Positions 25,423 through 51,877 of a stretch of 64,000 nucleotides of DNA are shown here, in pieces. Source of the stretch: Karstenula rhodostoma CBS 690.94 (lineage: Eukaryota; Ascomycota; Dothideomycetes; Pleosporales; Didymosphaeriaceae); assembly GCA_010093485.1 (NCBI GenBank), contig MU001503.1, forward strand, positions 380,224-444,223, given 5' to 3'. The notes below the pieces were generated by a model. It saw only the letters and a program-made list of their open reading frames with translations. It was not told the DNA's origin and made no database searches. The position numbers were made by a program, and so were the translations under genes. The stretch's first letter is position 1. Every line of letters begins with the position of its first letter.

Positions 25423-26606
25423 TTTACAGGCGCCGAAAGCAGGGAATGAGCGCAAGTATTTTATAAGGTTTCAAATGCAGGTGTTCAGCAATTGTTATAT
25501 TTGCAGATGAGTTCGCGCCTGCGAAAGGAATGGTTCTCGAACAACTGCGTGATTCTCGTGGCCTGGAACCGTGTCCCCAAGGCTTGCTTTCAAAGCGTGC
25601 TAAATTGTTTACCGTTCGTTCCCCATGCTGAGATCGACGGGAGTCAACCGTAATTCTTACCTCTCCTGTGCTCCCCGCAATGGTGGTAGTTGGCTGAGGG
25701 CGTCGGTTTTATGCAACTTAACCCAACATGGTAATGCGAGTGGTCCACACAGGTTACCCCTCATCTTGGTACATGCTTCTCTCGTTACCAGGTTACCTGT
25801 TGATCTGGTGAACACCCCACTGAAATAATTTAACGTTGCAGGGTCCTCGTGGCGCTTACGCTGACTGCCGATCTCTATCTTATGACAGGGTAGATCAAGT
25901 CATTCTCAGGCTGGCGACGTGGCACCTTTGCTACGCGAGGCTGGTTCTTCCAACCCACGCGCAAGTGGTCGCTAGTAATACAGCGCTCCCACCAACCAGC
26001 CATTCGCTACAACAGTATAACAAGAAGAACGCCGTTGAAGCGGATATAGTACGGGCTTCTTGAACGCTCATGCTAAGGATGGATTGTAAGGAATAGGACA
26101 AGATAGAGCAAAAGAGCGCAATTTATAGTCGTTAGCTTGTAGAGGGCTTGAGTGCTACTAGCGAGGTTTGATACACATGGAGAGATTGGAGAGATATGAC
26201 CTGCGATTATTCAAAACGAATTAAAAAGTTCCTAGCAGCACACAAGTATCGAACCTAACTTTTTCGATTCTATAAACTTCACCACCTCTTCAAAATTGCG
26301 TTTCCTCGCCTGGTATAGTGGGTGGATTTGATGGTGAAAGCGCCTTCGATGCAGTCATGGCAACGCGCAAGGACCCAGTGGAAGACAAATTACAATATGG
26401 ATTATCAGGAGGGAAATAATCGCAAAAAGATCGAGTTATCGAGCGTGTAGACAAAACTGTTGACAAAAAGGTCATTCCCCTAGCTAACAGCTTGAAAATA
26501 AGCGTACATTGTGGATTATACAAAATACGGAATATTGACACCAACGCACGTTAAAGAACATTTCTAACCCTGGCCATGCGTAAAAAGCCCAAGCAATTTC
26601 TTTGAT
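25423..26606. other. Intergenic, contains one copy of the 99-base element
   Basis: Upstream of the kinase-like gene and downstream of the DHA1 transporter. No gene recognised. The 99-base element at 26406-26504 is described separately. Confidence 0.5.
26406..26504 (-). mobile_element. 99-base dispersed element, copy A, with 15-base flanking direct repeats
   Basis: On the minus strand it runs from CGCTTATTTT to TTTCCCTCCTG. It matches a second 99-base copy at 50796-50894 with roughly nine substitutions and two compensating 2-base indels by eye. It is flanked by direct repeats at 26391-26405 and 26505-26519 that agree at 13 of 15 bases and are unrelated to the flanks of the other copy. That is the pattern of a target-site duplication. 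No coding capacity. It carries T-rich TTTTTGTC motifs and a GGGGAA / TTTCCC inverted pair. Confidence 0.7.
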
Positions 26607-28339
26607 CTATTGGGTCTTGTCGGAATCTTGAGCCTCTTCATCCGCTTTTTTTGGTGCACCGAAATCAGTTGGGGCACATGAGCTCATCTTCCGTAAGCGC
26701 GCACCAAAAATGTAGAAGAGGAAGGGTATCGGCATGAAAGCTACAGCCAAAAATCCAAGCAGAGAACCGGCCCAATCAACACCTAGCTTGTGGAACATCT
26801 GGGTTGCAAATAAAGGGAATCCAGCTCCAAAGAGACTCCGCAGGAATGTGTCTGCTGCAATACTGCTCGCGGAAACCATGAGATATGCATCGACAAGGTA
26901 GTTGAGCGCCTGCAGGAAGATGTTCAAGATTCCCGCACCGGACAAGATGCCGGACACAGCTAGCGCAGCCCAGCTGATGCTGGAATAATTGCCCGTCCAT
27001 GCGAACCAAAAGAGCCCAATTGGGAAGAGAATAGCACCAACCATCATGGGCAATAGACGCTGCTCGGGAACTGGGATGCCATTGTTCTCTTTAAGTTTGC
27101 GGTTGTAGCGTGGCTCGAAGGCGATGACAATGGCGCATCCCAATAGGACGCCAATAATGAGACCGATGTACATGAGCGTCGAAATGGAAGGCGATATGCC
27201 GCGGTATTCAGCGAACACGATCGGATAGGCTTCAAGAAAGAGATAGAGAATGCCATAGATGAACTGCTTTGTGTTAGCGGCGATGTGGTTGGTAGGTAAA
27301 TCAGAAGACTGCACCTACCGACGTGTATAAAGTTATGAGGAAGACGATCGGCTCAAGAAACAGTAGCTTCAGTGGCAATGCAAGATGTTTGTTCACTAAT
27401 TCTTTGAAGTCGATGTTTTCTTCCTCCGACACATGATGAATAGCCCAATTTTGCGTCTCAGACCGGATGAATTGGGCCCGCTTCCTGAGTATCGTTTTTT
27501 GATAGGTTTCTTCGAGAAACAAAACGTCCAGAACGGTTGCAAAGCCGCCCATTATGCTTGTAATGTACTGCATATACGGTTAGCGAGTGATGCCACATTG
27601 ACGTTCCCTGTGGCCTAGACCTACTTGAGTCCAACGCCAGCCAAGATGGCTCTCAGTGATGAACGCCGCAGCAATAGGAGATATGAAGGGTCCGATAAAG
27701 ACTAAGGCAGAGAAACAGGCGATTGCAATACCACGCGTCTCATTGCCAAATATATCAGAAAAGGCGCCTCCCACGACAACAAGTGGGCAGGATGCGAACA
27801 CGCCAGCAAAGAAGCGGCATAACATGAGGGTTTGGAAATCTTTTGCTGTGGCGCAAGCAAACATGAAGCAAGTCTATAGTGCTAGTGAGCAGATTTTCAC
27901 GAAAATGAAACGTAGTGCCACCTACAAATATGAAAGCCGCAACCGTGATAGGGATCTTACGTCCGTAAAACTCACTCAACGGACCAAACGCCAGCGGGCC
28001 CGTTGCAAATCCGCAGATATACAACGTCAACCCCAGCAAAGATATCACAGAGCCAACACCAAACTCCAGAGCCACCGGCGTTACAGCTGCCGAGTAGACA
28101 CTGCTTCCCCAACTGGCTACCAAGGTGTCAAATCCTAGGATCAGCGCGGCAATCATCTTATGGCTGAATCTCCAGTTCTTCGCATTGGCGGGGTCATCTT
28201 CACCGGAAAGCTCAACGAGATAAGATTTCTCGTCCGCTTCGAGGGGTGGTGGCAGGCTACGATTCGTTCCGAGTTGGAAACGCTGGGAAGTTTTGGTGCG
28301 CCGCACAGGATTTGTGTATGTGGGTGCGAGATGGAACAT
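26607..28339 (-). CDS. MFS drug:H+ antiporter, DHA1 family
   Basis: 523 residues from exons 28339-27926, 27873-27625, 27567-27319 and 27266-26607. All three introns are phase 0, 51-57 bases, with GTAGGT donors. The N-terminus is a polar cytoplasmic segment of about 65 residues (LVELSGEDDPANAKNW, the typical DHA1 lead-in), followed by about 12 membrane helices. MFS motif A is seen as GPLSEFYGRK. After helix 4 comes SPIAAAFITESHLGWRWTQ, continued across a splice by YITSIMGGF. The central loop carries LEETYQKTILRKRAQ, and the C-terminus is charged. It should be a plasma-membrane proton-coupled exporter of drugs, toxins or polyamines; the substrate is unknown. It is related to, but clearly distinct from, the transporter at 61975-63871. 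Confidence 0.88.
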
Positions 28340-29023
28340 GGCTGGAATGGAAACAATCACCACGGCGCGAGAGCATCGCGCGTAGCGGGACTCAACACCA
28401 TTAAGAACTTCGCAGAGCAATGACGACGGTACCGGAACTTTCCGGCCTCGTTGGCGGCGTGTTTGGTTTACGCACCTAATGCCTTCGAAGTGGGTTTTGG
28501 TTCCACACTGCCGGCAACGCCACGATCCACATGATGGTCTTCCGTATCGCGGAAGGAACCTCTGGATTGGACACCGGGTATGCACGGTGCCGTAGTTAAA
28601 AAGCTATTCTAGTGAGTATGTGATGAGGAAAGGTCTCTGGTGGTCTTCCTTAGTGCAACCTCGACTTTGCGAGATATCCTCTGTGCGTATAAATTGCGTC
28701 ATTATGTGGTAAACGGCTTCATACTCGTCGATGTATTCATCTGCTCGACTTCATTGAAGCAACATACGTAGCGGGGGTACAATTTCGGAATGGAACATTC
28801 GCCACAGCCCCAGGCATTGCGTTGGGTCTGCCATCAACAGGAAGACCGACCCGTCAGACTCGTACGAAACTAAAGTAACTTCCGATTGGGTCCAAGCTAT
28901 TGGTGAGGATGTATGCGGCTTGACCAATGTACATAATTTAGTGGTATAACAGTGTCATAAACCCGAAGTTGTATCTGGAGCATCCGTACCCAATGAAAAC
29001 GCTACTCAGATTCACATGCTTCT
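28340..29023. other. Intergenic, no supported gene
   Basis: Promoter side of the DHA1 transporter and 3' side of the next P450. Nothing recognisable. Confidence 0.4.
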
Positions 29024-30707
29024 TCACTGCATCTTGCGTTTGCGAATTTCGATATCAACCTTGGGAGGGATAGAAGTCCTTCCCACCCAGTTCGTGACCG
29101 GTCTTTCCGTGATCGGCTTTAGTTCGTAATTCATGAATAGATGTGCAAACATGATCTTGAGCTCGTGCGCGACAAAGAAACGACCGGGACTAGCACAGTT
29201 GTTAGGCAAAGCTTTCAAAAAATTGCATGCCCTTCTGGACTTACCAGGCGTGCCTTCCGTGTCCAAAGGCTTGATGCGCGGGACTAGTGGTAACCATGCC
29301 ACTTTGCCTTAACTTTAGCACATCCACGTTGACCTTCTCATTCTCGCTCATGGATTCAAATTGTTCTCGATCTCTCGAAAAGCGGAAAGCATCGTACGCA
29401 TCTTCTTTCCCGTACAACTCATCGTCATGAGCGACCGGAAGCCAAGCGCACGACAGAAGGCATCCATACGGATAGTGGATGCCCTCTGGGCTTGTGATAC
29501 CCTCTTTTGCGATGACCTTCTTGCTTATGAGGCTCATAGCCATGGTAGAATGCCGTTGGGATTCGCGAATTGCCGAATCAAGCTTGTACATACGTGACAA
29601 ACCGTTCTTTGTCCACTGCTTACCGTCTTCGTTGTAGATCCGAGTAGCTTCTTCGCGCAATGCTTCCACAACGCTTGGGTCCGCACTCAAGATATCGATG
29701 AGCGCACTGTGTGCTGTTATGGCTGTCGTGTGGATGCTCGCAAAATTGAGAGGGCAGATACGTATCGCAATGCGACTTGGTTGAAGTTCGTCATTTCTTC
29801 CTTCATCCATGGCTGTGCGAATGGTCCATGTGATGAAATCGTTCGGCGCTTTCCACTCGGCGTATGTTGGATCACCGGCATCCTTTTTTCGGAAGTCTTC
29901 CAGTCTCTTCTTGATGATCGGCAATGTGTATTTGCGTGTCCGCCAGTAATGATACTTGGCACCTAGACTGTAGATAGGGCCAATAATAGGGTGCAATGCC
30001 CGTGGTAACATGGGAAAGAGGATGAGACCAAGCACAACATCGGTGGTGAAGCCCATCATGTTCTTGAGAAAATCCGGGTTCCTGCATACTGATTCCCCTA
30101 CCAACATGCGATTGGTAATCTTTGGGATGATATTCATAAGAAACCCCTCCATGAGATTGACCTTCTCGAACTGCTCAGTATCAGCACCGCACACGTCTGC
30201 GACATCGATGCTGACTTCATCGACGAGCTCTGGTATGATAGCGTTCAGATTACGTGCTAGGTTTTTATGTAAGATATGCTCGTGATATGGGTCCTTCAAG
30301 ATCGCTGGTGAAACGAAAGCATAATCGCCATTCAAAGTGTCGTAGTGCGCCGACCTTGTACTCAGTACATGGTCAGGTTGGTCCAACATCCACTGCATCT
30401 GCGACCGAGGTATTGAAACTTCGATAGGCAGCCCGAGCATCGATGGGATTACGAAGGCGCGGCCCTGTTTGGAGTATTTCTGATAACCTTCTTGCAGCCA
30501 GTCGCGGCTTTTGGAGAAGCCATCGAAGGTGTTTTTCAAGGCAACTGCCCAAGATTTGCCGTGGCCAACCCAAGGCAAAGAATCGGGATACTTGGGCGCG
30601 CGCAAAAAGCCGATAGCGAGGGTGATCGCGAAATACGTCAGAGCTGTGGCGAATATATTGAACAGAGTAAGACGTTCGACGACGAAGCTCCCCGAATGAT
30701 GCTCCAT
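29024..30707 (-). CDS. Cytochrome P450 (ent-kaurene-oxidase-like group)
   Basis: 542 residues from exons 30707-29245 and 29189-29024. The start is ATG 30707 (MEHHSGSFVVERL); the nine upstream codons open only with TTG. An anchor helix (LFNIFATALTYFAITLAIGF) is followed by PDSLPWVGHG. The I-helix reads FASIHTTA, the variant usual in this fungal group. ExxR is ESQR. The haem loop FGHGRHACPGRFF is split by the intron 29190-29244, which lies inside the codon of the Cys ligand itself (TG, then T). The unspliced frame would end in Trp-stop, so splicing is essential for activity. The group oxidises terpenoid or polyketide intermediates; no terpene cyclase is in the window. Confidence 0.88.
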
Positions 30708-31555
30708 GGTGGCAGGTGACGCTTGACGCGTCAATAACGCATCAATCGACCTCGTAATAGGTGGGTGATTGAAGCTGAAGATCGATGCACGAAGGTCTAG
30801 GCGTCGTGTCCTGTTTGTATCTTCCCAAAGGACGGACCGTTTGACAACCTGGGCGGCTAGCGTCGCGGCTAAAGATCATGATCTCGCGTTGATCTAACAA
30901 TAGGTCTACCTAATGGGGGCGCACAGCTGTAGCTCATGGCTGCAAATGGCAAATGCACGACGCTTGATGGCCATTGGGTGCATTGTGAGATAACCGTGTT
31001 GGATGGCGAGCGCAGATGTGGTGGGTTCATGTACGACCCCGCCGATGCGTGCTCCATCCTCTTTTGAAACAACGCGCGAGCTTCCGACATGTCGATTGAC
31101 AAAAACGACATTACCGATATTTGCCAGAGATGTGTGTGTTTTGTTTTGTTGAAGGAGGCGTTAGGGCTATTTTTCAGTAGCCTTCATCGATTCGCATCCC
31201 ACCCGGGGCGCAGTCCAGTCACAAACTTCTCCCAATGGACTATAATAACCGCTGCGATTCTTTTTGCTTCTTCTTATAAGTTTCACGTTTGCTGCAATAC
31301 TGTGCTCAGGGATTTTGCAAGTCAGGACGATTGAAGTTCTGCATCTGCGCTGCGCCTCCGCATGCCGACGGTTCTTCACGGCGCTCCACATGCAGGTGCC
31401 CCCACTTGAAAAACAGAATGCTCAACATCTGTTTAGCGCCCCCCCCTCCATACTACAGTGCGTCGTCATACTGGTTCTGCCTTTTGCAAACGACCGCATA
31501 GGCATTTAGCTGCTATATAAAGCGACTTGCTCAGAAAAATTACATGAAGACAACA
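30708..31555. other. Intergenic, no protein gene supported
   Basis: Upstream of the P450 gene and 5' flank of the tRNA gene. Short unsupported open frames only. Confidence 0.4.
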
Positions 31556-31664
31556 GCTTCCTTGGTGTAGTCGGTTATCACGTCGGTCTCATAGCTTATC
31601 TTGCCTATGACTGTTCTCAGCAGCAGATATCCGAAGGTCGCCAGTTCGAATCTGGCAGGGAGCA
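31556..31664 (+). tRNA. tRNA-Met (CAT), elongator type, with a 35-base intron
   Basis: The acceptor stem GCTTCCT (31556-31562) pairs with AGGGAGC near the 3' end, allowing one G-T pair, with discriminator A at 31664. The D arm is GTGTAGTCGGTTATCAC. The anticodon stem TCGGT / TCCGA closes the loop CTCATA-A with anticodon CAT at 31590-31592. The T arm is GCCAG-TTCGAAT-CTGGC, which includes the internal B-box. A 35-base intron (31594-31628) sits after position 37, the canonical nuclear tRNA intron site. A T-run (TTTCCTTTTT) follows as a Pol III terminator. The GCTTCCT...AGGGAGCA stem is that of fungal elongator tRNA-Met rather than initiator. Confidence 0.88.
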
Positions 31665-32533
31665 TTTCCTTTTTGCCTATCTGACGGATGGATGTAGTAG
31701 TGTCAGCAAACACGCACATCAGTATTTTTGTCGTGAGGAACGCGTTTTGATGCAGCGTACGTAATACATAATGTGGAGCGGAAAGGGCCTTGCGGTCCAC
31801 GGGTGCGAGATGTGCACGTGGTTGCCCGCACCTCACATTGCAACACCTGGCTGCACCCCATCCATAGATGCCCCGCCATGTGGCATGGCGAAACATCGCT
31901 CGGTCTCCACGACGTAGTCTTTTGCACCCGTCGGTTCCTGTCTCACATGGTTCTTTAACTTACGTCACGATCGATCTGGCTGCCGCAGAACACTATGGCG
32001 CGTCTGAAACCTACCTCCTACACTCCACGCATCGACGTAGAAGCGCATCTCCTGAGCCCCTGCACACACTACAGATGTCATTATTCATGACAATTTGACA
32101 GTTGCGCAGTTCTCTCCAAAGATTTCATCTTGAAAAACACGACCACGATGCCCTTCCGCGCTGCTGTCCCGCCAGTCAATCGGCTGGCTGATCGAATTGT
32201 GCGATGCGCGCCCACAACTTCGCTTATGATTTGCGTATGGAGTTCAAATCTCTGTAGCATGTTTTGAATACGTACCTGAAATGGCAGGGTGTCCTTGCTT
32301 GGCGCAATGCCCGGGTTCTCTGGCCATAGCCTGTCTCTGTCACCTGCAGCTGATGGACTTTGTGTTTGTGATTACCAGGGGGCATGCGAACTGGCCACGA
32401 CTCGTTTCACGGGTGAACCTAATTAAGGTTCGAGCGGGAGGTCCAGCGTCATGAGCGCTATCGATATAGATAGTGTGGGCGATGGCACCTCCTCCCGCGT
32501 TGCACCCTGCTGAGATGCACACTGGTTGTCGCC
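31665..32533. other. Intergenic, no supported gene
   Basis: Downstream of the tRNA and promoter side of the third rhodopsin-domain gene. No recognisable coding region. Confidence 0.4.
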
Positions 32534-33889
32534 ATGTCGAACAGTACCTTTGCGCTGATGATGTACCCAAGTGGTGATGAGAAGGCGCGACAGAATGTCG
32601 CCGCCGGGGCTATTATCACAATGACCATCTTTGGGAGTGCGTTGACCACCGGAGCCGTCGCGCTGCATCCACTAACAGTCTACAGTAGCATGTATTGCTC
32701 TACGCATCTACACACGCGCCCTTATCGTCCGGAATATGGGCAAGGAAGATTGGACGATGATCGCGGCAGCGGTAAGACTACGACTCCTATGTAGTTACCC
32801 AAGACTGACAGAAGTTTATTGTAGATACTCACAATAACCTTCGCGATTCAACTGCTTGTCGCCGTGAAGGAGTTCAAGTTGGGCTACAGTGGCATGTCTT
32901 TGTCAATGGAACAAGCTGTGGCAGGCTCAAAGGTATGTTTCTTTTGACGCTGCTCTGGCCTCAACGTAGCTCATACCGTGTAGCTGGGACTTTCTGCGAT
33001 TGTGGTGTACAAGTCTATTGTAACCTTGATCAAGGCCTCTATACTAATGATATACCTCCGCTTATGTACGTCGGATACCTACAGCCGCTGGCGCGACTAA
33101 CATCCTCTAGCCGTGACCAAGACCTTCGAATGGCTTTGCAAGGGAAGCATCTATCTTCTCTTCACGTACCAGGCCATCGTTATCATCATCGTACCTCTGG
33201 AGTGTATCCCGCTGCGAAAGGCATGGGATTTCAGTGGCACTGTTCCCGGACACTGCATTAATACAGCGGTCTTCTACTATAGTGCGTTTCATACCTCCAC
33301 ACACTGAGTCCTATTACTGATGCTTTCAGTCACGTCCGCCTTCCATATACTAATGGATGTGTGGATCTTACTGCTTCCATATAAGCTCATCTTCTCCATT
33401 CCCCGCCCTACGCGTGAGAAATTCGCCGTCTACGCCGTCTTTGGCCTCGGTGCATTCAGCACCATCTGCGCTGTCATCCGCTTTCACTTCCTCATCGTTT
33501 CGCTCAACTCCATGGACCCGTACTACGACTCGCTCGGCGTCAACGTTTGGAGCGTCATCGAAGTCAACGTGGGAATCATCTGCGCCTCGATGCCCACTCT
33601 CCGCCCGCTCCTATCCAGAGCCCAACGCGTTCGCACGAGGCACGCCTTGAAAATGTCAGAGCAGAGCGACAAGCCATCCACCCCCTGGAGTAGCAAGAGA
33701 GGTGGGTTGCTGCAGGTCAAGGAGATGTTCATCACCTTGGGTACCGTTACAGCTGGCACTTTCAAGAGCACCAGAGATTCTGTTTATGACGTGGAACAGT
33801 GGCGCGACGAGAAGCCGCCCCCGGTACCACCCAAGGATATGAAGACTCTGCGGCTTTCGTATCCTGATATGGCTCACCGGAAGTTTTGA
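32534..33889 (+). CDS. Rhodopsin-domain integral membrane protein
   Basis: Six exons give 369 residues: 32534-32636, 32686-32771, 32825-32932, 32984-33065, 33111-33281 and 33330-33889. All introns are 45-53 bases and every frame change is explained by a clean donor and acceptor; for example 32637-32685 is GTGCGT...ACTAAC...CTACAG. In order: MSNSTFALMMYPSG lead, helix 1, LRIYTRALIVRNMGKEDW, LLVAVKEFKLGYSG, VTLIKASILMIYLRL, the Cys/Pro loop with PLECIPLRKAWD, FHILMDVWILLLPYKLIF, and IEVNVGIICASMPTLRPLL. The tail is about 95 residues and polar. It is the third member of this family in the window and has more introns than the other two. Ligand or function is not known for the family. Confidence 0.87.
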
Positions 33890-34530
33890 AACATCATTTG
33901 ACTATACCAAGAACTGGATCCACCGTTTTACACCCGTTTCGCTCCAGGCCGAGCTTGCACTCGTCGCATCGCGGCAGCCTATATCGCGCGTCGATAGACG
34001 CCTGACGCTCCCGCAACCGACCCGCGGAAAGAGGTGATATAAGATGAGGTGTCGCTCGAAGCAGCCCTCGGCCATCCATGGCTTCGGGCGTCTTACACCC
34101 CCAGCCACGGGTCGCGCTTACCATGGCTCTGGATGTCACCGCCCCCACCCACAGGTTGCCCTGTAGCGAGCCCACCGTCTTGTCCAAGCGACGTGAAATG
34201 AGTAAGGATACACCAGGGTACCAGATGAATTTAGCATTGTGGGGTTTATCCCTACGGGTTGCTTTTATCGCAGTTTAGCATTCTGCTCGGCGTACGTCAT
34301 TCTAGTTTATATTACCTTCATTGTTTTGTATGAAATCAAGCCTTCTTCTCTGCCACCGCTTCTCAGTCTTCGTAAATTGTTCACTTAGCAGCGGCCGATG
34401 CATGAACAGGAAAGAAGAAACGCTTTCGTCTTTTCCACTCCTCCGGGATCCCGACTTATCAACAGGAGAGGAGAAGCAACCCACGATCCCGCTACATTTA
34501 CATCTCACCATAACCACCACCAACGCTACA
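33890..34530. other. Intergenic between convergent receptor gene and SDR relic
   Basis: No gene recognised. Confidence 0.4.
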
Positions 34531-35261: not shown

Positions 35262-35327
35262 TTTTGATCTGTTTGAAAGCCGCGGCTTGCCCGAGCGCGC
35301 GAGGTATCAAATTTGATCTGTTTGGAA
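35262..35327. repeat. Direct repeat TTTGATCTGTTTG, 50 bases apart
   Basis: TTTGATCTGTTTG occurs at about 35263 and again at about 35312. The sequence between them is GC-rich and includes CCGCGGCTTG, which is also the core of the adjacent dispersed repeat. It may be an insertion bounded by a duplicated target or a local rearrangement. Confidence 0.5.
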
Positions 35328-35336
35328 TCTTTATAT

Positions 35337-35402
35337 TCTGGCACCTTATAGAGTACCTGTACTGCGTTTTGCCGCGGCTTGTAGAAGCTCGCGAACAGTC
35401 AC
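35337..35402 (-). repeat. Dispersed repeat with CAAGCCGCGGC core, copy 1
   Basis: The minus-strand sequence from TGACTGTTCGCG through CAAGCCGCGGCAAAA to AGGTGCCAGAA matches 48367-48434 (plus strand) at roughly 80 percent over about 67 bases by eye. No coding potential. It lies about 440 bases upstream of the SDR relic. Confidence 0.6.
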
Positions 35403-41062: not shown

Positions 41063-44000
41063 ATGTACAGACATAAGCGCTCCAAATCGAGCAGCGTCAA
41101 GAATCTCCTGGGGAGAGTCTCGTCGCGAAACGACGTCACGGATCCTGAGGCGCTTCCAGAGAGCTCCTCCGCCACCTCGCTCACCTCGCACCAGCCCTCT
41201 TCGAGCTCCTCACACCCGCAAAACCACCACGTCCACCTTGGGCACTCGCGAAGCACATCGTCAAAGCACCGCCCGCACCTCTCCGTCGCCATGTCCAACG
41301 TGAACGCCCAGGACGCCAGTGCGAGTGGCCCCACCTCCCCCAGCTACGCGCCGTCCCCGCTGTCCCCAACCCCCAAGACCGCCTCCATCGAGCAGTCGGT
41401 GAAATTGTTCCGCGTCTTCGAGTCGCTTCGTAACGGCGACACGGCTGCGATATCCAAGGCCATCAGGGAACAGGCCAACGCCACCACGCCAGACAGCGAC
41501 CAGAGCAGCACTTCACTTACTCTTCCTAGCCGTGCCGAGGGTACTACGATTCTGCATCTGGCCATACAATGCGCCGAGGTACCTGTCATAGAATTCGTGC
41601 TGTCGAATGCCACCCCTGGGCCCGAATCCGTCATCGATATCAACGGCCGTGACCGCGATGGCAATACGGCCCTGCACCTCGCCGCGACCCTCGGCCGCGC
41701 ACCTGTTGTGCGCATGCTGCTCGACAAACCCGGTATCAACGATTCCATAACCAACTACAACGGACAGACGCCCCTGGACCTCGCCCGCACGCCCGAAATC
41801 TTCCAGCAGCTGCAGCTGGCTCGATCCATATTCATAGACACCAATGTGAAGAAGGTACAACAACTCCTAGCTGCCGGTGACATGGCCTCTCTGGAGAAAT
41901 TGTTGCAAGACGCGCGGATAAAGAGTACGCTTGACGTAAACGGCGGAGAGCTCGTGACTGATCCCGTTGTTGTCGAGGCTGGAGGTACTCTTCTGCACGA
42001 GGCCGCCAAGAAGAAGGACGTGAAACTGGCACAACTCCTTCTCCTCAACGGAGCTGACCCCTTCCGGAGAGATCGCAAGGGCAAGCTTCCTCAAGACTAC
42101 ACCAAGGATGACCGGACTCGTGCGATTCTGAAGCGCTCACCAGCTGCCGCCGCAGCGCAAAGAGGAATACAAGAAAAGACGATCCTCGCAGGTGTAGTGC
42201 CGCAAGCTGGAGCCGTGCCCGAGAGCGGCATGGGTACGAAAGAGTCACGCGAAATGAAGGGTTACCTTAAGAAGTGGACCAACTACACCAGCGGTTACAA
42301 GTTGCGCTGGTTCGTTCTCGAAGACGGTGTGCTAAGCTATTATAAGCATCAAGACGACACGGGCACCGCCTGTCGTGGCGCCATCAACATGCGCATTGCA
42401 AAGCTCTATATGGACCCGCAGGACAAGCAACGGTTTGAAATTCAGGGCAAATCGTCTGTCAAATATCATCTCAAAGCGAACCATCAGGTCGAGGCCAAAA
42501 GATGGTATTGGGCGCTGAACAACGCTATCCAGTGGTCCAAGGACGAAGCACGTGAAGAGACGAAGCGCACACAGCAGGATCAGGAGGCACTAAAACAAGC
42601 CAAGATAGAGCAACTAGACAAGCGTCTGACCAAAGAAGGTGACAGCTCTAGCCTTTCTAGCTCCAAGATCACCAGTTCGCGGCACCCAGCTCCTACGACA
42701 TCTCTTGGGGTGCCTTTGACAAGCCAGGATACGGCGTCGCGTTCTGGCCAGAGCGTGGTGGAAGATGGGCCAGAGAGTGCCTATGACGCCAGCGTTGCTG
42801 GCAACGAGCTCGGCAAGATGGTTAGTCATGTGGGCACGGCTACTGTGGAGGGTGACGGCGACGATGATGATGAAGAGTATGGCGACGACACGAGCAGCCA
42901 CGAGGTCCAGCCCCAGAATAAGGACGCTTTCAACATCACCGCACAGTCCGCGAAGCTTCAACTCGACCTTCTTGAACATGTATCCACCGCGCTACAACAG
43001 GAGAAGACGAAAAATCCGACGCTGCAGATTTCAGATCCTATGATGCTGCAGGCGCTTTCCTCGTACGAGTCAGCAGTGGGCAATTTGAAGGGACTGGTAG
43101 GCGACTTGCTCCGCATATCGCGAGATCGTGATGCTTACTGGCAATACCGACTGGACCGAGAAGCAAACGTGCGCAGGATGTGGGAAGAGAGCATGGCCAA
43201 GGTCGCCCGCGAGCAGGAAGAGCTCGAGAACCGGATAGGTGAAGCCGAAACCAAGCGACGAAAGACCAAGCGAGCTCTGCGAGAGGCCTTGGGAGATTAC
43301 CAGGCTGCCGGCGAAAGGAGGGTATCCAAGGGTTCGGACGACTTCGAAGAAGCCGAGGAGGACCAGGCAGCATTGACGTCGGAACCTAACTCGCAAGCAA
43401 TGAAGAGGAAGGCTACTCTTGCTAACATTGCTGCGGACATGTCTGAGTCTGATTCGGAAGATGATGAGGAGTTCTTCGATGCTGTAGGCGCCGGCGAGGT
43501 GGAGGTCGTCGAGATGCCATTTGAGACGCACGATGGTGCATCGAAAGAAGCGCCTCCTGATGAGAGTGGTGATTTGTTCGAAAGCAAACTTGCAGATGTT
43601 GCGAAGGGCTTCGTCGGATACGAAGGTGGTGTGCGCAAGAAGCTTACCATGGACGATGACGATAGACCGAAGATCTCACTTTGGGTAGGCAACATATCTC
43701 TAGCATATTTGGCCGAAGCTGACTTGATCATAGGGCATTCTCAAATCCATGATTGGAAAAGACATGACCAAGATGACGCTTCCGGTTTCCTTCAACGAGC
43801 CAACATCCCTCTTGCAACGTGTCGCGGAAGACATGGAGTACACTGACCTCATTGACACCGCCGCTGAACGTACCGATTCCACCGAGCGCCTGCTTTATGT
43901 CGCCGCATTTGCCGCTTCAGAATATGCCTCGACCATTGGCCGTGTGGCGAAGCCATTCAACCCTCTCCTTGGTGAGACGTACGAATACGCAAGACCTGAC

Positions 44001-44956
44001 AAGGGCTACCGTTTCTTCATTGAACAAGTCAGCCATCATCCCCCTGTCGGTGCTGCTTACGCCGAATCCAAGAAGTGGGACTACTATGTAAGTTTGAATA
44101 GCGCCGCGTCTGGCGGTAACAACATGCTGACGTATCCTAGGGCGAATCAGCGGTCAGGTCCAAATTCTACGGCCGGTCGTTCGACATCAACCCGCTCGGA
44201 ACCTGGTTCCTGCGCTTACGGCCAACAGCTACCGGTGGCAAAGAAGAATTGTACACCTGGAAGAAGGTCACCTCCTCCGTCATCGGCATCATCACTGGTA
44301 ATCCTACCGTCGACAACTATGGCCTCATGGAAATAAAGAACCACACCACCGGCGAAGTTTGTCAGCTCGACTTCAAGCCTCGCGGCTGGAAGGCCTCGTC
44401 TGCATTCCAGGTCGTCGGAAAGGTGATGGACGCGGAGGGCCGAGTGCGCTGGAGCGTGGGCGGCCGCTGGAACGACAAAATATACGCGCGCTTTACGCCC
44501 GGCTTCGAAGACGCAGACATCGACAAGGGCGGCTCGAAACACGTAAAGCACGAAGATAACAAGGCCTTCCTCGTGTGGCAGGCACACGCGCGCCCCACGG
44601 GTATCCCATTCAACCTCACGCCTTTCGTCGTGACGCTCAACGCCGTCGACGACCATCTTCGTCCGGTCCTCGCGCCGACGGACACCCGCCTCCGACCCGA
44701 CCAGCGCGCCATGGAGGATGGCGAGTATGACCTCGCCGCCACGGAGAAGAACAGGGTCGAAGAGAAGCAGCGCGCGGCGCGGAGAAGGCGCGAGGCGCAC
44801 GGCGAGGAGTTCGTGCCCAAGTGGTTCTCCAAGGGCAAGTGCGACATCACGGGCGAGGAGTTTTGGGAGTTCAACCACAAATACTGGAACACGCGGTACG
44901 ACGTTGCGCAGAAGACTACGAAATGGGAGGAGCATGGGCTCGAGGATATCTTCTGA
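41063..44956 (+). CDS. OSH1: Oxysterol-binding protein, ANK-PH-ORD type (Osh1/Osh2-like)
   Basis: 1263 residues from exons 41063-43684, 43734-44087 and 44141-44956 (introns of 49 and 53 bases, both phase 0). Order: a Ser-rich basic N-terminus, ankyrin repeats (about residues 160-350), a PH domain (about 396-493, [20 protein letters not shown]), a coiled or acidic linker, and the ORD sterol-binding domain (from about 875) with the family signature EQVSHHPP near residue 970. An FFAT-like motif EFFDAVG, in an acidic context near residue 802, would tether the protein to ER VAP. ANK-PH-ORD is the arrangement of yeast Osh1/Osh2, which exchange sterol for PI4P at membrane contact sites. Whether it matches Osh1 or Osh2 cannot be told; fungi of this group usually have one. 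Confidence 0.92.
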
Positions 44957-45202
44957 GATGCGTAGGCCTGCATGCGTTGATGATGTTCATGATTGATCTG
45001 AGCTTGACGGCCTGGGGAAAGCCTGTGTACATGTTGGGGATGGATATACTGATTTGATTGGGATTGCTTTGTAGTCTTAGCGTATGCGTAATGTGGAAGT
45101 CTGGTCTCTTCAAATTGAATAGTTCGCGAAGCCCTTGGGCTGTGCGTTGACTATCCAATTCCACATCTCGGGACCCTGAGGTGAGTCAACACGACCCCTT
45201 CC

Positions 45203-46126
45203 CTAACGTGAATCAGTCTTGCCCATCAACAGCATTTCTTGCTCCACCGAGAACCGCCCCACGAGCGGCGGTTGGAACCTAGAAGCCCTCCTTGTCAGCG
45301 GGTCCATATTCTCCTCTCCACCGGGCACATGCCGCGCCCTAGGTCTTGTCACCTCAAGCTTATACCGCAGCGGCGGGCTACTCAGCTTCTCCAATCTCAT
45401 ATCCTCCCGCTCCACCACGTCCGACTCCACGAACCACCTGCCCTCTTCCAACCGCGCTTTCTTCCACTCCACGACGACCCGCAGACTTTTGTCGTTGTCC
45501 ACCGCGACCCAGCAGCCGCCCCCTTTGCCGTCGCGAACCCACTTCTTCGGCTTGACCTGGTGTTTTGCGGGATTCAGGCGCGCCAGCCACCCCTCCATCC
45601 AGCCAATTTTCTTCGCCTTCTCTTCGCGGGCGATGACCTCTTCCTCGGTTTCCTCGTGCTCAGTGCCAACGTAGGCATATCCCTGTTTCTGGCCCGCGAG
45701 AAGCTCTGCTCCCCCGACGTCGACACGGCACTCCCTGCGAACGCCATCTCCATCCTCATAGCTGAAGGGAACGCTGACGATTTTGTCTTCCACGTCCGTA
45801 GCGTCGTCCACGTTGAGGTCTTTGTCGGCCTCGGTGGGGAGGCCATCCTGGCTGTCTTTTGAAGCGTCGTCAACGATCGTTTGGGGTGTCGGGGTCCAGC
45901 TGAGGTCCGACCCGGCAGAGCTCGCGCTGGGTGGCCTCAAAAGCAGGGTTAAATAATCGATGTTTAGCGTGCAATCTGGCGTGCAATCCATTTCTATTTC
46001 CTCTTGGGCGGGTGTTTCCTCTGGGGTGGGTATGTAGAATGGAAACGGAGGGCCGCCCCCTTCGTCCAGTATCTCATCAGGAGGGGGGCTTGCCGATTCC
46101 GTGCTTCGATCCCGGCCAAGAAACAT
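45203..46126 (-). CDS. Conserved-looking protein of unknown function
   Basis: Single exon, 307 residues. The start is ATG 46126 (MFLGRDRSTESASPPP); the open frame begins two codons earlier with TTG only. The N-terminal half is acidic and Pro/Ser-rich, probably disordered. The second half looks globular: WMEGWLARLNPAKHQVKPKKWVRDGKG is followed by CWVAVDNDKSLRVVVEWKKARLEEGRWFVESDVVEREDMRLEKL, suggesting alternating strands. No signal peptide or transmembrane helix, and no motif that names a function. It is tail-to-tail with the oxysterol-binding protein gene (246 bases between stops). The strand is chosen because the frame is long and compositionally protein-like, although overlapping plus-strand frames also exist. 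Confidence 0.65.
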   Translation of the reverse strand: MFLGRDRSTESASPPPDEILDEGGGPPFPFYIPTPEETPAQEEIEMDCTPDCTLNIDYLTLLLRPPSASSAGSDLSWTPTPQTIVDDASKDSQDGLPTEADKDLNVDDATDVEDKIVSVPFSYEDGDGVRRECRVDVGGAELLAGQKQGYAYVGTEHEETEEEVIAREEKAKKIGWMEGWLARLNPAKHQVKPKKWVRDGKGGGCWVAVDNDKSLRVVVEWKKARLEEGRWFVESDVVEREDMRLEKLSSPPLRYKLEVTRPRARHVPGGEENMDPLTRRASRFQPPLVGRFSVEQEMLLMGKTDSR

Positions 46127-46865
46127 GGTCAATCAGTTATCTCTACTGAGAGCGATCCGCTGTTTTTTTTTCAGACGACCAGATGGTCGGTGATGCAAAA
46201 AGTGTTGTCGTCGCAGCGATGTCGCCGCGGAGCCAAAGTACGGTGCTGCGATGCAAGACTGGGTAGACGGGACGGTGTGCGATTGTCGTAAGAATATTGG
46301 CGAGCGAAAGAAAAAATGCAAAAGATGCTCGGTGCAAGAATATGTTGCGGCAAGCAAAGTGCGGTACGACTGTTCTGTTGCCCCGTGGATGGATAACGAC
46401 GCGTTGAAGGACGACGATACACGATACACTGAACCGATGTGCCATGCCACCGCCCATTGGGAAGGTGGCATGGCATGCAAGCTGCTCTGTGGCTGCCATT
46501 CGAGCATACGCAGTAAGTGTATTGAACGTATTGCAGTAGGCACAACCTGCGAAACAAGAGCGATCGCCCCGGCGCCCCAAAGTCGCGCTAAAACCGACAG
46601 CCCTCAGTTTCGTGTGCACACTTTGTGCGTCAACAACGAGATTTTCGTTACTTCAAACCTGTGTAGTTGAATTGGATGGAGAAAGCTATGGCACGTACTC
46701 ATGGTTTCGACGACGGAATCTACCTCGACGTTTGCTACTGTCAACCTAACTTCGGACTTGCACTCTCAGAAAACATGCGATATTCATGCGTACAGACGAA
46801 GCCCGTGCCGACCATGAACATCAAAGACAGCTATCTCCAGCGAAAATTGCCTGTTTCGGGCCTGC
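46127..46865. other. Intergenic, no supported gene
   Basis: Several overlapping open frames of 95-158 codons on both strands but no domain, splice structure or start context worth calling. Confidence 0.4.
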
Positions 46866-47978
46866 CTATGTATGCCCCATCATCTCCAAGCTCTTGTGAT
46901 AATCACTCGTCCCACCCTCAGGATCCCGATCCTTTGGCTTGCAACTCTGATTGAACGGGACCTTCCCCTTGCCATGAGCGCCATCAATAGCCATGAAAGA
47001 CTGTCCCTTCGCTTTCAGCATGTTCTGCGCGGCGTCGTCGAACCAGCCGTTGATGAAGTCGCCATGGAAGCAGTAGCCGTCACCAATCTTTCGCGCCTGT
47101 TAGCAGAAGGCCTTTTCGGAAAGAGAAATACACGGCGCACGACATCTCTCACTCACCTCACCACAGGCAAGCTTGAAGGGCGGAATGCCGCTCCAACCGC
47201 CTGGGATGGCAGCCTTGGTGTTGTATCTAGCTGAGAATCTCAGGCTCGGCATCCGCTTCATCCCAGCAGGACTCGCAGCCGCCGGGACTCGCAGCCGCAT
47301 ACGCATACTCGGTCACTTTATTCGGATTGACGCAATCGGGGAACCTGCAAGAGATCATTCCAAGTTTCTTTCGCCCCGAGAGGCTTGCACTCCGGGTTTC
47401 GCAATTGCACCTCAAGATGGCCTGCATATGCGCGCCACACGTCCCCCTGGGGAAGGCTGCTCGAGGACGGCTGTTCCGATCATCCGCGCCCGTATCGCAC
47501 CACCACGTTATCGCCGTGAGTTTCTCGTTGATATCGGCCTACGACTTTGCAGATGCGTTACCTGCGACCATGTGCAGGTCGCGGGGGAAGGGGATCTCAG
47601 CGCGGTCGATGTTTTCGTAGTAGGTCTTGAAAGTGGCGGGGTAGACCTCGGTGTAGGTATCGCCCTTGACATAGTAGAGGGTTGGAGCCCCTAGGCCGCT
47701 GTGAGACGTGGCCCTGTGCAGGCAGGTGGGGATGGAGAGGGAGGTGTACAGTATACTGAGAGATCGTTCGGGTTCTCGCCTGAAGGACAGCCTTTCTGAA
47801 GCTCTGCCGTGGTTGGGAGGTTTTTGGTCACGGCATCGGAGCCGTAGAACGAGTGCATGTGGGAAGCATATTTGCCGGGGAGGACAATGGGGTCGATGTT
47901 CTTTCTCATGAAGGGCTTGTGCTCGATATCGGTGAGCGCGGCGACAGCGCCGGCAAAGGCGAGAAGGGCAACGCGCAT
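46866..47978 (-). pseudogene. Secreted DUF1996 protein gene, disrupted
   Basis: Four family-supported exons: 47978-47750 (signal peptide MRVALLAFAGAVAAL, then PIVLPGKYASHMHSFYG), 47690-47411 (WAPTLYYVKGDTYTEVYP...IPFPRDLHMVAGNASA, then WWCDTG), 47344-47157 (FPDCVNPN...IPGGWSG) and 47096-46866 (GYCFHGDFINGWF to TAG). Introns are normal GT...AG. Two lesions break it: an in-frame TAG at 47539-47541 in exon 2, and a 16-base tandem duplication (47269-47298) in exon 3 that shifts the frame. Without the extra 16 bases the exon phases close exactly. DUF1996 proteins are secreted and of unknown function. The high overall preservation suggests recent inactivation, or sequence error, which two independent lesions make less likely. 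Confidence 0.8.
47269..47298. repeat. 16-base tandem duplication inside DUF1996 pseudogene
   Basis: GGACTCGCAGCCGC occurs at 47269-47282 and 47285-47298, a period of 16. Removing one period restores the reading frame between the preceding and following conserved segments. Confidence 0.85.
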
Positions 47979-48793
47979 CGTGGTCAGGGTCTCAATGGTG
48001 AGACGATCAGTCGGGCAGGAGCCTTCAGATGCTCTTTCCATATATATATATGTATCTCGCTTGTTGCCGGCATGGTCGACAGTGTGGGGTAGAACTGCCG
48101 GTGAACGTTCTCAATTTACAAAACCCTATTTGCCGCTGACAACTCTCCAATCATGGCAACATCCGTAAACAAAAACCTTTATGGATCAAGAAAACGACTT
48201 GTGGTTCGTCAAGAGTGCCCCCTATTTGGTGCAACCCGAGGTACGGTGGACATCTACATGTTCTGGAATCCAAAGGATGTGGGGGAAACTGGACGGGCGA
48301 GCCAAGAAAACACCAGTGTCTATATACCCAGTTCCCCAGTACCCGTAGTGCACTTGTAAACCGATTGTTGACTCTTCGCGCGCTTTTGCAAGCCGCGGCA
48401 AAAATGCAATACAGGAACTCGGTCAGGTGCCAAAACGTGCGTATGAGGAATAGAATACAAGTTGGAATGTCGGTCGCCAGTAGCACATGCATTTCGCGCG
48501 AGGGGCAGTGAAATTATGACATTTGCTAATGGGTATCTTTGCTTCATAAGAAATAAGAGATTGGTTGGCCTGGTAAAGATATCGTCGGCACAGCTGCCCG
48601 GTCAAGGTAGAGTCCGTGCTTGGTTGGATCACGATAGGGAGGACGAGCTGTTTCGCCAGATGCTGGTAGCCAGTGGTTTCGGCGGTGATGACCATCCGCT
48701 GGTTCGCTTCTTCTGTCGGTTGTTGCAGATAGAATCCTCGGTCCAAGGAACAATTATAGTAGATGGGCATGTGGTGCTGGGACGTGACTCGAT
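47979..48793. other. Intergenic with dispersed repeat copy
   Basis: Upstream region of the DUF1996 pseudogene and 3' side of the next gene. A short (TA)n run near 48041-48052 and the repeat at 48367-48434 are the only structures seen. Confidence 0.45.
48367..48434 (+). repeat. Dispersed repeat with CAAGCCGCGGC core, copy 2
   Basis: TTGACTCTTCGCG through CAAGCCGCGGCAAAA to AGGTGCCAAAA. It matches 35337-35402 on the opposite strand at roughly 80 percent. It lies about 390 bases upstream of the DUF1996 pseudogene start. Confidence 0.6.
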
Positions 48794-49826
48794 CTAAAAG
48801 TACTTTGCGATGGCGGCATCCTCTTTCGTCGGGGTCGTGGTGCCCATCTCTTTGCTGACAGCATTTATGCTGCCGGTTTTACCCGATCCGTGGTGCATCT
48901 CCGCTGGCATCATGGTCCCTTCAAGTTCGGCTCGTACGGTTCCAGCTGATTCATACGTGACATAGGGAGGCGGGTTGGCTTTTGAATCCGAGAGCAGCAC
49001 TGCATTGTTGTGACGGTTTGCCTTTCTTCGTCGCATGAAGAACAAAGCACCAATGATCGCAAGTACCGCGAGGACGCCCAGTGTGATACCCACTCCCATG
49101 CCTGCTTTCGCACCAGAAGATATTCCTGGTGATTCGGATGATGCAGTCGGACTCGGGGTCGAAGAGGTTACGGACTTAACCGCTGCGGTCGCGGATGTGG
49201 TGGAAATCAAATGTCTACTGGAGGATGTGGATGAGGCCGAGCTGCTGGCGGAGGAGGTGGTGCTGATGCGTGGCAGCGCTGCGGCCGCGACCCCTACTAC
49301 CACTGGCGCATTGGCCTTGAATACCAAATCTTCGTCGTTGCAGCAACTCGTATTCCGACCGGTAACACCCGCCTCGAGCGTGCCTTGCGGTGTGCAGCAG
49401 AATTCGTTTTTCGGCTCGAAACAGTAGAAAATGAAAGCGTTGAAGTGGTCGGGTTCCTCTGCACGCATTGTAAGCGATGGTCCAAGTCGAGTAGTCGGCA
49501 AGCATACCTTTTCCCCGGCAGTAGTTAGGGCAAGCGGGATCTTTCCATGTTTTGTCGGTACAGCCGTTTCTCCAATAATGATTTGCCCCTTTAGCTTCAT
49601 TCGCTTGCTCCATACACAGGCCATTGGTCATGCAGAGGTCTCCGATCGCGCAACAAGACGAGTGTTCGCCATTCTCGATGGCCGTTATATTGCAAGGAAC
49701 GTAGATTGCTTTGGAATTCGTGTAGAGCGATCCGTTGTTGGCGTAGCATTCCGCGGCCATTTTCACGGTGGCGCAAAGTTCAAGTATGCGTTTGGAGGAG
49801 GGCGGACTCGAGAGAAAGGATGACAT
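48794..49826 (-). CDS. Single-pass surface protein with Cys-rich ectodomain
   Basis: Two exons, 49826-49508 and 49458-48794, join in phase 1 across the 49-base intron (GTATGC...GTGCAG) and give 327 residues. The ectodomain has many paired Cys (SSCCAIGDLC, CPNYC, FCCTPQG, SCCND) and starts AECYANNGS, the layout of a fungal Cys-rich extracellular module. A Ser/Thr-rich stretch (STTSSASSSASSTSSSRH), a transmembrane helix (GVGITLGVLAVLAIIGALFFM), a basic RRRK stop-transfer and a cytoplasmic tail with PPPYVTYE follow. This resembles wall-stress-sensor-like architecture, but the function is unproven. No clear signal peptide follows ATG 49826; ATG 49904 is also in frame, so a small upstream signal-peptide exon may be missing. 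Confidence 0.75.
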
Positions 49827-50795
49827 GGCGGGCCGGACTGCGTATGCATATAGCCTCCCACCGCGTCCGTGTCCGACCCGCAACTCCGCCTTCCCGCAAG
49901 CCATCTGAGCGCCAAGTCAATGGTAAACTTCTCAGATGGGTAGCGCGATGGCTCCAAGAGTTTCATGTTACTGTGCGGATCGATAATTATGGGGCCGGGC
50001 GTAATTCTATTGGCTCGGGGTGATAGTATCACAATGTTTACAAGTCCGGCCATCTCATTACGCGAACTCATTTCAGGTTTTGGTTTTACACCAAGGAGGT
50101 CATACATAGCTTCAGAGGCAAGTTTGATTTCATCATACTTTTGCACATATAGCTACACTTCCAAGGCTGCAAATGTTTACGAGCACACCGACTATCGCAA
50201 AAATCGACCCTGTTGAAATGTGCGACCTCCTGCGACGGTTGCTTTACGCCCGTTAATTCGCAGGGATCGCGCGGCCGCATCTCGCGCGAGAGGCGGTGAA
50301 TGATCCGCGACCTGTGCGCGAGAACGTGGCGAACTGCAACAACAGCGTTCCCCGTCCGGTTACTCTCGGAATCTTCAATGCCCGATTGAGGTTGAAGATC
50401 GTCGCTCAGGCATTGCGCCTTGGAATCTCCGCATCGAAGTATCTGCAGGATCGAATGACATTATCGGGCTAAGCCGCAGTCTGGTGTTGTTCTGGCTGGT
50501 TGCTAATCACGCCTCTAGCCGCCCCACGCCCCCCACTCTGTAGCATGGACACATGGATCTTGCCGCTGGTCAGACCTTGAAAGCTAGGGTCAGCAGCGGC
50601 GATCGAATCCTACCAACCTGGTTACAGTGTTGCCTTTTTTGGCAACTCATTCGAACTGGAAAATCAGCTCGCGAGATCTGGAACGCTTGAGAAGGGTCTC
50701 TTATGCTCTGAGAGACTCAAGGTTAGTTGCCGAGTCTTCCAGTCCTAGGCACCACAGCAAGAAGCGCGTTAGCTTCGCATTAAATGGCATCTCAG

Positions 50796-50894
50796 AGCTT
50801 ATTTTTGAGCTATTAGCTAGGGGAAATACCTTTTTGTCAACATTTTTTTGTCTACACTCGATAACTCGATCTTTTTGTCATTATTTCCCTCCTG
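50796..50894 (+). mobile_element. 99-base dispersed element, copy B, with 12-base flanking direct repeats
   Basis: Runs from AGCTTATTTT to TTTCCCTCCTG and is exactly as long as copy A at 26406-26504. It is flanked by perfect direct repeats ATGGCATCTCAG at 50784-50795 and 50895-50906. Internal features are a small inverted repeat AGCTA-T-TAGCT, GGGGAAAT (50820-50827) complementary to ATTTCCC (50883-50889), and three TTTTTGTC motifs. No open frame of its own. Confidence 0.75.
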
Positions 50895-51877
50895 ATGGCA
50901 TCTCAGCACCAAAGTTGGCAACCTGTCTTAAGATTCGTGCGGTTCAACGGTTTCCCGTGACTGAACGCAACACCACATTTATAGAAGTTCTTACGAAGGG
51001 ACGAGAGCTTTGATCGAGTGATTAAAAACAACTTTACGGCACCTGTGCAACACTGAGTACGGTTGAAATAGGCACCCACGGGCGCTTCTTCCCGATAGTC
51101 TTCCTCGGCTCCGGGATCCCGACTTGCCAACTTGTCACGGTTGAAGATACCTGGGTGCCCCGCACGACATATAGCTTCTCCAGCTGAATCTCAGCGTTTC
51201 GAATGAATGCCGATGTTACAGCGATTCTGTAACTCCTAGTCAGGATCTCCTGCATGGTACATCGTCAGCTGCGTGATTTCGTTCAACATGATCAAATGTT
51301 TCCAATCGTCTGAAGTGACTTGTGAATAAGTCATGGATATCCATGTCTCAAATAGGTGGAGAGGGTTAAGCTATGGCTCGTTCTCCACACTGTGCAAGTC
51401 TGATCCACACTTCACGCGAACCCATAGTCTCGCCCTGCTAAATGCACATTTTAACGATCAAATACGTAAGGTACTAAAGGCCATAGCTGAAGCTACCCTA
51501 CATCACATAGCAAACCCTATCTGGTCTACGGTATTACGTAGACCGATGAATGGTCAAATCGTGAGATCGCTGTCTACAATAACAATTGAATTTGACGTCG
51601 TAGCCTGTCTGTCTCAACCTACGGCTCTGTTACGACGGAACAACTTCCAATATCATTGCTTTAGAGCAACCCCATAGGATATGCGGCTCGCTGTGTGCAC
51701 AGTGTCGGCAGGCTGTAAAGTAGCTGCAAAGAAGGACGCACTTGCGCAGTGGATTTCACCGAACATAGGCGTGCGCCTCTATCCCCACGGTGAAAAAAGT
51801 ATTTTTCAATGCCCGCTCCGTGTAGTCACATGATCGAGCAGGGCACGCGCATGCCAATTCTGCACCAACCCCAGGTG

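What the first reader, a model, noticed from the sequence alone, without database searches (positions are those of the whole stretch)
26391..50906. Two copies of an exactly 99-base element, each framed by its own direct repeat
Seen directly: 26406-26504 (minus) and 50796-50894 (plus) align end to end over 99 bases, with about nine substitutions and two compensating 2-base indels. Copy A is framed by 15-base repeats with two mismatches (26391-26405, 26505-26519), copy B by perfect 12-base repeats (50784-50795, 50895-50906). The framing repeats differ between loci, so they belong to the target sites. Known: variable-length target-site duplications of this size are usual for LINE/SINE-type insertion, while DNA transposons give fixed short ones; short structured introner-like elements are known in Dothideomycetes. 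Inference: this is a very small non-autonomous mobile element. It has no terminal inverted repeats, no poly-A tail and no GT...AG ends, so it fits no standard class well.
Basis: partly seen in the sequence, partly recalled or inferred. Interest (0 to 1): 0.8.

Follow-up and report, generated by a model that had tools for sequence, protein, structure and literature searches.

The report
Truncated tails of a fungal retroelement
The two matching 99-base pieces are broken-off ends of a roughly 1.2-kilobase copy-and-paste element that has about a hundred copies in this fungal genome: an ordinary kind of mobile DNA, but a family whose copying partner could not be found.

Summary
The 'very small element' reading is half right. 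This fungal genome (Pleosporales, near Paraphaeosphaeria) holds roughly 105 copies of the same tail. The 64 copies examined share a fixed 3' end (CCTCCTG, or CCTCCAG in an apparently older type), while 5' ends vary from about 34 bases to a common start near 1.17 kb. TSDs score in 50 of 64 copies, against 3 of 313 swapped-flank controls, at a consensus site TTTNT|ATAG; four insertions have clean empty sites in paralogous repeats. This is the anatomy of target-primed reverse transcription with 5' truncation. 'Exactly 99' reflects a truncation hot spot (14 of 40 truncated copies end at 94-103 bases) at the base of a predicted hairpin. The full-length element is heavily RIP-mutated, with no detected protein domain, tRNA, poly(A) or shared tail with the LINE 3' stretches examined. 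Best filed as a SINE-like, probably non-autonomous non-LTR retroelement family whose LINE partner is unidentified. Copies over 250 bases carry RIP damage; most shorter ones do not. New member of a known kind; modest interest.

The parts
26406..26504 (-). Copy A: 5'-truncated 3' end of the retroelement, 99 bases, main tail type (CCTCCTG)
   Evidence: alignment with copy B; family
26505..26519 (-). Copy A, TSD at the element's 5' side (ATAATCCACAATGTA)
26391..26405 (-). Copy A, TSD at the element's 3' side (ATAATCCATATTGTA; 2 mismatches to its partner)
26490..26503 (-). Copy A, predicted hairpin at the truncation hot spot
   Evidence: minimum-energy fold; whole copy only z -0.9 against shuffles
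26472..26481 (-). Copy A, 5' arm of the predicted tail stem
   Evidence: (pairs kept in related copies, changes one-sided only)
26410..26419 (-). Copy A, 3' arm of the predicted tail stem
50796..50894 (+). Copy B: 5'-truncated 3' end of the retroelement, 99 bases, main tail type (CCTCCTG)
   Evidence: (L001 is this copy)
50784..50795 (+). Copy B, TSD at the element's 5' side (ATGGCATCTCAG)
50895..50906 (+). Copy B, TSD at the element's 3' side (ATGGCATCTCAG)
50796..50811 (+). Copy B, predicted hairpin at the truncation hot spot (AGCTTA TTTT TGAGCT)
50820..50828 (+). Copy B, 5' arm of the predicted tail stem
   Evidence: z -3.0 for the whole copy
50882..50890 (+). Copy B, 3' arm of the predicted tail stem

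Best explanation
The 99-base pieces are 5'-truncated copies of a ~1.17 kb, apparently non-coding, non-LTR-type retroelement. Its RNA ends in a fixed tail (...ATTTCCCTCCTG). A LINE-type endonuclease nicks one strand at TTTNT|ATAG; the freed end primes reverse transcription from the RNA tail; synthesis often stops early, most often at the base of a hairpin about 97-103 bases from the 3' end; second-strand cleavage 8-15 bases away makes the TSD. Shown: fixed 3' end, variable 5' ends, TSDs, target motif, empty sites (for four longer copies), truncation hot spot. Inferred: target priming itself, RNA structure as the cause of the hot spot, and that the enzyme is supplied in trans by a LINE not identified here.
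For: Fixed 3' end with 5' ends from 34 bases to ~1.17 kb. TSD score >=8 in 50 of 64 copies against 3 of 313 swapped-flank comparisons. Target consensus TTTNT|ATAG, A at +1 in 50 of 50. Clean empty sites in paralogous repeats for L033, L040, L045, L047. Hot spot: 14 of 40 truncated copies at 94-103 bases, maximum 12 in 20,000 uniform simulations. No Pfam domain better than E 0.077 in six read-through frames of one full copy; no frame clearly depleted of stops in ten copies.
Against: No LINE with this tail was found, so the enzyme is unknown. 14 of 64 copies have no good TSD by my score, 6 of them of the main tail type. The tail stem has no compensatory changes, and folds of several copies are not clearly better than shuffles (copy A z -0.9; L012 -1.25 and L016 -1.14; the 209-base L003 stretch -0.5). 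All full-length copies examined are RIP-mutated, so lost coding capacity cannot be excluded. No 99-base copy could be tested for an empty site.
Confidence: 0.75

Rival explanations
1. The pieces are remnants of an autonomous LINE itself: the ~1.17 kb form is an internally deleted or RIP-ruined LINE, and the short copies are ordinary truncated LINE 3' ends.
For: Same insertion anatomy. RIP has destroyed any former reading frame in the long copies. One of the six alignments of LINE 3' stretches with the tails (L103, the C20 LINE, against the older tail) scored 27, equal to the maximum of 200 shuffles, and L103 against the main tail equalled its 95% shuffle level.
Against: The ten long copies share one start and length near 1.17 kb, too short for a LINE reverse transcriptase plus endonuclease; no Pfam domain in read-through frames of L045; by my reading of the lists no RVT_1 match lies within 3.5 kb upstream of a listed tail.
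Confidence: 0.13
2. A classical tRNA-derived SINE with a polymerase III promoter, of which these are truncated tails.
For: An internal GTTCGAATCC resembles a B box (seen; the motif is recalled); TSD sizes fit.
Against: ARAGORN finds no tRNA in 7 loci and Rfam none up to E 5 in 3 loci; the B-box-like motif sits about 1 kb from the 5' start of full copies and is followed by T runs that would stop polymerase III (sequence, recalled rule).
Confidence: 0.05
3. The ~99-base copies derive from a separate, processed ~100-nt RNA that is itself retroposed, rather than from early stops on the long RNA.
For: 14 of 40 truncated copies end within 94-103 bases.
Against: The other 26 truncated copies spread from 34 to 501 bases, which early stopping explains and a discrete RNA does not.
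Confidence: 0.05
4. A DNA element (MITE), Helitron, LTR remnant or introner-like element.
For: Insertion next to AT recalls Helitrons, and short structured introners are known in Dothideomycetes (both recalled); the older tail type ends CCAG|A like a splice acceptor.
Against: TSDs of 8-14 bases of variable length, variable 5' ends, no fixed 5' terminus with GT or TG, no terminal inverted repeats seen.
Confidence: 0.02

Closest known systems
Mg-SINE with its LINE MGL/MGR583, Magnaporthe (PMC3747384 and PMC2104539, passages only)
   Same: Fungal, non-coding, mobilised through a 3' end, truncated copies inside direct repeats of 10-20 bases (chimeras)
   Different: Mg-SINE is listed as tRNA-derived and shares its 3' end with a known LINE; here no tRNA and no partner were found
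WEIRD and the MINE chimeras, Magnaporthe (PMC2104539, passages only)
   Same: A ~1.1 kb non-coding RNA of unknown function spread by LINE-type retrotransposition
   Different: WEIRD is joined to truncated LINE copies by template switching; here the long RNA carries its own tail and no LINE sequence was recognised
AfuSINE2 families, Aspergillus fumigatus (PMC5063351, passages only)
   Same: Fungal SINEs with TSDs of 4-14 bases, some with LINE-like 3' ends
   Different: tRNA-related, 140-493 bases, low copy number, polymerase III promoter
SINE-like elements of unknown promoter such as EdSINE1 and R4-N1_ED with LINE R4-1_ED, Entamoeba (table rows seen in a passage of PMC3747384)
   Same: Not tRNA-derived, LINE-type mobilisation
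   Different: Amoebae, and the partner LINE is known

Membership tests
Non-LTR-type retroelement moved by target-primed reverse transcription | Fixed 3' end with variable 5' truncation | tested here: met
   64 copies, 3' end CCTCC[TA][GA]; 5' ends 34 bases to ~1.17 kb. The 19 older-tail loci were picked by an end pattern, so their shared 3' end is partly by selection
Non-LTR-type retroelement moved by target-primed reverse transcription | Variable-length TSDs | tested here: met
   50 of 64 with score >=8, 3 of 313 in controls; 8-14 bases
Non-LTR-type retroelement moved by target-primed reverse transcription | Endonuclease-type target motif at the first-nick edge | tested here: met
   TTTNT|ATAG in the 50 TSD-bearing copies; comparison with LINE nick sites is from recall
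Non-LTR-type retroelement moved by target-primed reverse transcription | Empty sites carry one TSD copy | tested here: met
Autonomous LINE | Reverse transcriptase encoded | tested here: inconclusive
   No Pfam match better than E 0.077 in read-through frames of one copy, but the long copies are RIP-mutated
SINE (classical) | tRNA, 5S or 7SL head with polymerase III promoter | tested here: not met
   ARAGORN 0 of 7 loci; Rfam to E 5 on 3 loci shows none; RIP damage lowers sensitivity, but L031 is little mutated over its ~210 bases
SINE with stringent LINE partner | 3' end shared with a LINE of the same genome | tested here: not met
   No shared tail in 3' stretches of 6 RVT_1 loci (L102-L107) or in L052-L081; the C9 LINE remnant was not fetched
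MITE / DNA transposon | Terminal inverted repeats and fixed short TSD | tested here: not met
   5' ends vary between copies; TSDs 8-14 bases
Helitron | Insertion between A and T without TSD | tested here: not met
   TSDs present
Introner-like element | GT...AG ends, sits in genes as an intron | tested here: not met
   No fixed 5' GT; main tail ends CCTG. Gene context was looked at only roughly and only in the window

The most novel reading that the evidence does not exclude
An orphan, non-coding ~1.17 kb RNA with no tRNA head and no partner LINE recognisable in its own genome has built a family of about a hundred copies in a RIP-active fungus. Its truncation hot spot produces ~100-base offspring too short for RIP, so early stops act as a way to leave long-lived, readable copies in gene-rich DNA.
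Probability: 0.15. Interest if true: 0.55.

Novelty: new member of a known kind. Interest (0 to 1): 0.35.

Why it matters
It turns an odd pair of 99-base repeats into a bounded retroelement family with a mapped 3' end, target motif, truncation hot spot and empty sites. It shows length and RIP fate side by side in one family: 12 copies over 250 bases have a median RIP index of 18, 33 shorter ones 0.8, although length and location are confounded. It poses a testable question: which enzyme recognises this non-poly(A) tail.

Tried and rejected
tRNA or other known-RNA origin: Rfam on the whole window gave one ordinary tRNA elsewhere; ARAGORN on 7 loci, none; Rfam to E 5 on 3 loci, one sub-threshold microRNA match outside the element. 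Coding content: stop counts in ten copies and Pfam on six read-through frames of one copy, nothing convincing. Partner LINE: RVT_1 scan, tail pattern, two LINE proteins against the genome, BLAST of tails against L052-L081 and L102-L107 (matches of at most 15 bases), shuffled local alignment on three LINE 3' stretches: two of six scores reached the 95% shuffle level, one of them the shuffle maximum, both for L103; I treat this as weak. An older-tail query returned 40 matches of 54 candidates, many already known. Covariation: one-sided changes only. Occurrence elsewhere: the exact tail patterns gave 0 in viral contigs and 0 in bacterial/archaeal genome contigs; fungal genomes other than this one could not be searched. 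Literature: the listings show no title describing this family; apart from passages of three papers I saw listings only, so absence from print is not shown.

Rows dropped: one search used the 50 of 64 copies with TSD score >=8. One search used 45 of 64 (19 older-tail loci left out). One search used 40 of 64 (RIP-mutated long copies, L035, L048, copies under 80 bases and identical tails left out). In one search copy A's length was set to 99 (its 15-base TSD) instead of the automatic 106; without that the hot spot holds 13.
Full report
Observation. The two copies are as described: 99 bases each, 9 substitutions, two compensating 2-base gaps, framed by different 15-base (two mismatches) and 12-base (perfect) repeats. 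Copy A begins 103 bases past the stop of an ORF on the same strand (26607-27314 minus). Copy B lies about 0.9 kb upstream of an ORF with a RING finger (51809-54100).

Host. A window protein (41063-43846; ankyrin and PH domains) is 92% identical to one of Paraphaeosphaeria minitans and 87% to proteins of Bimuria and Kalmusia. The genome is therefore a pleosporalean fungus close to Paraphaeosphaeria (44.3 Mb, 29 contigs). The search tool holds no relatives of it.

Copy number and true borders. Copy B as a query gives 40 matches scored of 120 candidates, at 87-100% identity. A tail pattern with up to 2 mismatches gives 113 matches against 8 for the reversed pattern, so about 105 by subtraction. 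Laying the copies side by side showed that they share the 3' border but extend upstream by different amounts. A query from the upstream part of L003 found 21 loci. Ten of them run about 1.17 kb (1.16-1.25) to a common start, (G)TAGCGTCTTTACTTTATAAATAATAG or its RIP-changed form, with TSDs at both ends. A start pattern gives 19 matches, 0 in the control. By my reading of the two lists, 14 of the 19 have a listed tail match on the same strand at an outer span of 1,157-1,241 bases; tails were listed for 100 of 113. Of the other five, L101 looks interrupted by other sequence and four were not examined.

TSD test. For 64 distinct copies the 3' flank was compared with the region around the 5' end of homology. 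50 of 64 score >=8, against 3 of 313 comparisons with flanks swapped among copies. By tail type this is 39 of 45 main-type and 11 of 19 older-type copies; among the 14 misses L027 gave nothing at all. Duplications by this method are 8-14 bases, most often 11-12. The target consensus is TTTNT|ATAG, with A at +1 in 50 of 50, T at +2 in 42 and A at +3 in 35. In target-primed reverse transcription this edge of the TSD is the one cut first and used as primer (established knowledge), which also sets the sense strand used here.

Empty sites. The flanks of the 50 copies, joined with the TSD once, were compared with the loci held at that point and the window. Clean crossings, with no gap within 20 bases of the junction, were found for four: L040 (inside a repeat with reverse transcriptase and RNase H domains; 19 uninterrupted paralogues span the junction, one of which was viewed base by base), L033 (two), L045 (one) and L047 (two). 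L007, L016, L018 and L042 gave only weak or gapped crossings and are not counted. L033 is a 289-base truncated copy and the other three are full length; no 99-base copy could be tested this way.

Why 99. Of 40 truncated TSD-bearing copies, 14 end 94-103 bases from the 3' end (13 if copy A is left at its automatic length). The largest 10-base bin in 20,000 uniform simulations of the 32 copies between 80 and 215 bases was 12. The stop lies at the base of a predicted hairpin GCTTA-TTTT-TGAGC. Six more of the 40 end at 184-210 bases, near a GC-rich stretch, although the fold of that 209-base stretch is no better than shuffles (z -0.5). Reverse-transcriptase stopping at RNA structure is the simplest cause, but is inferred. 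Bias: the first query was 99 bases long, which disfavours much shorter copies; 19 loci were added through an end pattern and include copies of 34-79 bases.

Tail structure. A stem GGGGAAA/TTTCCCT is predicted in both window copies (copy B z -3.0, copy A -0.9) and in three others (z -1.25, -1.14, -2.74). In 40 tails without heavy RIP each of seven pairs is kept in 38 or 39 rows, but all changes are one-sided. The stem is plausible, not proven. The 3' terminus exists as CCTCCTG and as CCTCCAG; I call the second older because those copies are more divergent from one another.

Content of the 1.17 kb. All six frames of ten copies are full of stops, with none clearly depleted. Six read-through frames of L045 have no Pfam match better than E 0.077, far under the curated cut-offs. 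No tRNA was found, although an internal GTTCGAATCC resembles a B box. Full-length copies have 20-30% GC. The RIP-type index TpA/(CpA+TpG) of the last 95 bases has a median of 18 in 12 copies over 250 bases and 0.8 in 33 shorter ones. Exceptions: L043 (499 bases) has only 2.3 and L045 5.3; two short copies are high (L035 3.25, L048 20). Long copies sit in AT-rich DNA (median flank GC 0.19) and short ones in 0.48, so length and location are confounded. Given this damage, former coding capacity cannot be excluded.

Partner. Of 105 RVT_1 matches, by my reading none lies within 3.5 kb upstream of a listed tail on the same strand. The high-copy RVT_1 family represented by L055 carries reverse transcriptase and RNase H domains, which I read as Gypsy-type. 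The LINE proteins of L053 (one intact endonuclease-reverse transcriptase frame) and L052 find five LINE loci in all, on C4, C9, C17, C20 and C26. Fetched 3' stretches of C4, C17, C20 and C26, and of two further RVT_1 loci, do not carry the tail; C9 was not fetched. In a finer test two of six alignment scores reached the 95% shuffle level, both for the C20 LINE. The enzyme is therefore unidentified: it may be lost, too mutated, tolerant of foreign tails, or, at a stretch, the C20 LINE.

Comparison. PMC3747384 (passages) describes LINEs that need a specific 3' end, often a stem-loop, and lists two fungal pairs: Mg-SINE with MgL/MGR583 and SINE2-1_BG with Tad1-24_BG. PMC5063351 (passages) gives tRNA-related Aspergillus SINEs with TSDs of 4-14 bases. 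PMC2104539 (passages) gives Magnaporthe WEIRD, a ~1.1 kb non-coding RNA fused to 5'-truncated LINE copies, within direct repeats of 10-20 bases. The present family works like these but fails the classical SINE head test and the shared-tail test. I file it as a new member of a known kind: a SINE-like, probably non-autonomous non-LTR retroelement family.

Noticed in passing
35279-35310, 35367-35401 (+) and 48369-48403 (-); also L102 and the 3' flank of L095: Another dispersed short repeat around TTTTGCCGCGGCTTG...TATCAA (pairs I2 and I5); a closely similar stretch lies about 0.35 kb into L102, downstream of the C4 LINE frame, and its neighbouring GAGTTCCTTTACTGTG recurs beside L095.
   Followed up: no
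L082-L100: An apparently older tail type ending CCTCCAG|A, resembling a splice acceptor, with copies truncated to as little as 34 bases.
   Followed up: partly
L053 / L102 (G000:C4, about 2654283-2657672, minus): A LINE with an intact endonuclease-reverse transcriptase frame (1279 aa open frame) that is the only full match of its kind in this RIP-active genome.
   Followed up: partly
L101 (G000:C2:242700-244700): A copy with a little-mutated 5' start that appears interrupted by other sequence, part of which is withheld as N.
   Followed up: no
59358-59798; 12987-13290; 57267-57381: Three tandem arrays with units of about 111, 116 and 36 bases (families D1-D3).
   Followed up: no
34433-34463 and 51101-51131: A 31-base direct repeat pair at 84% identity containing CTCCGGGATCCCGACTT (family D4); could be chance or another repeat.
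   Followed up: no
L004: Its 3' flank ATGTCACGAT recurs about 40 bases upstream of the start of homology, so this copy may carry extra non-element bases at its 5' junction; it counts as a TSD miss.
   Followed up: no
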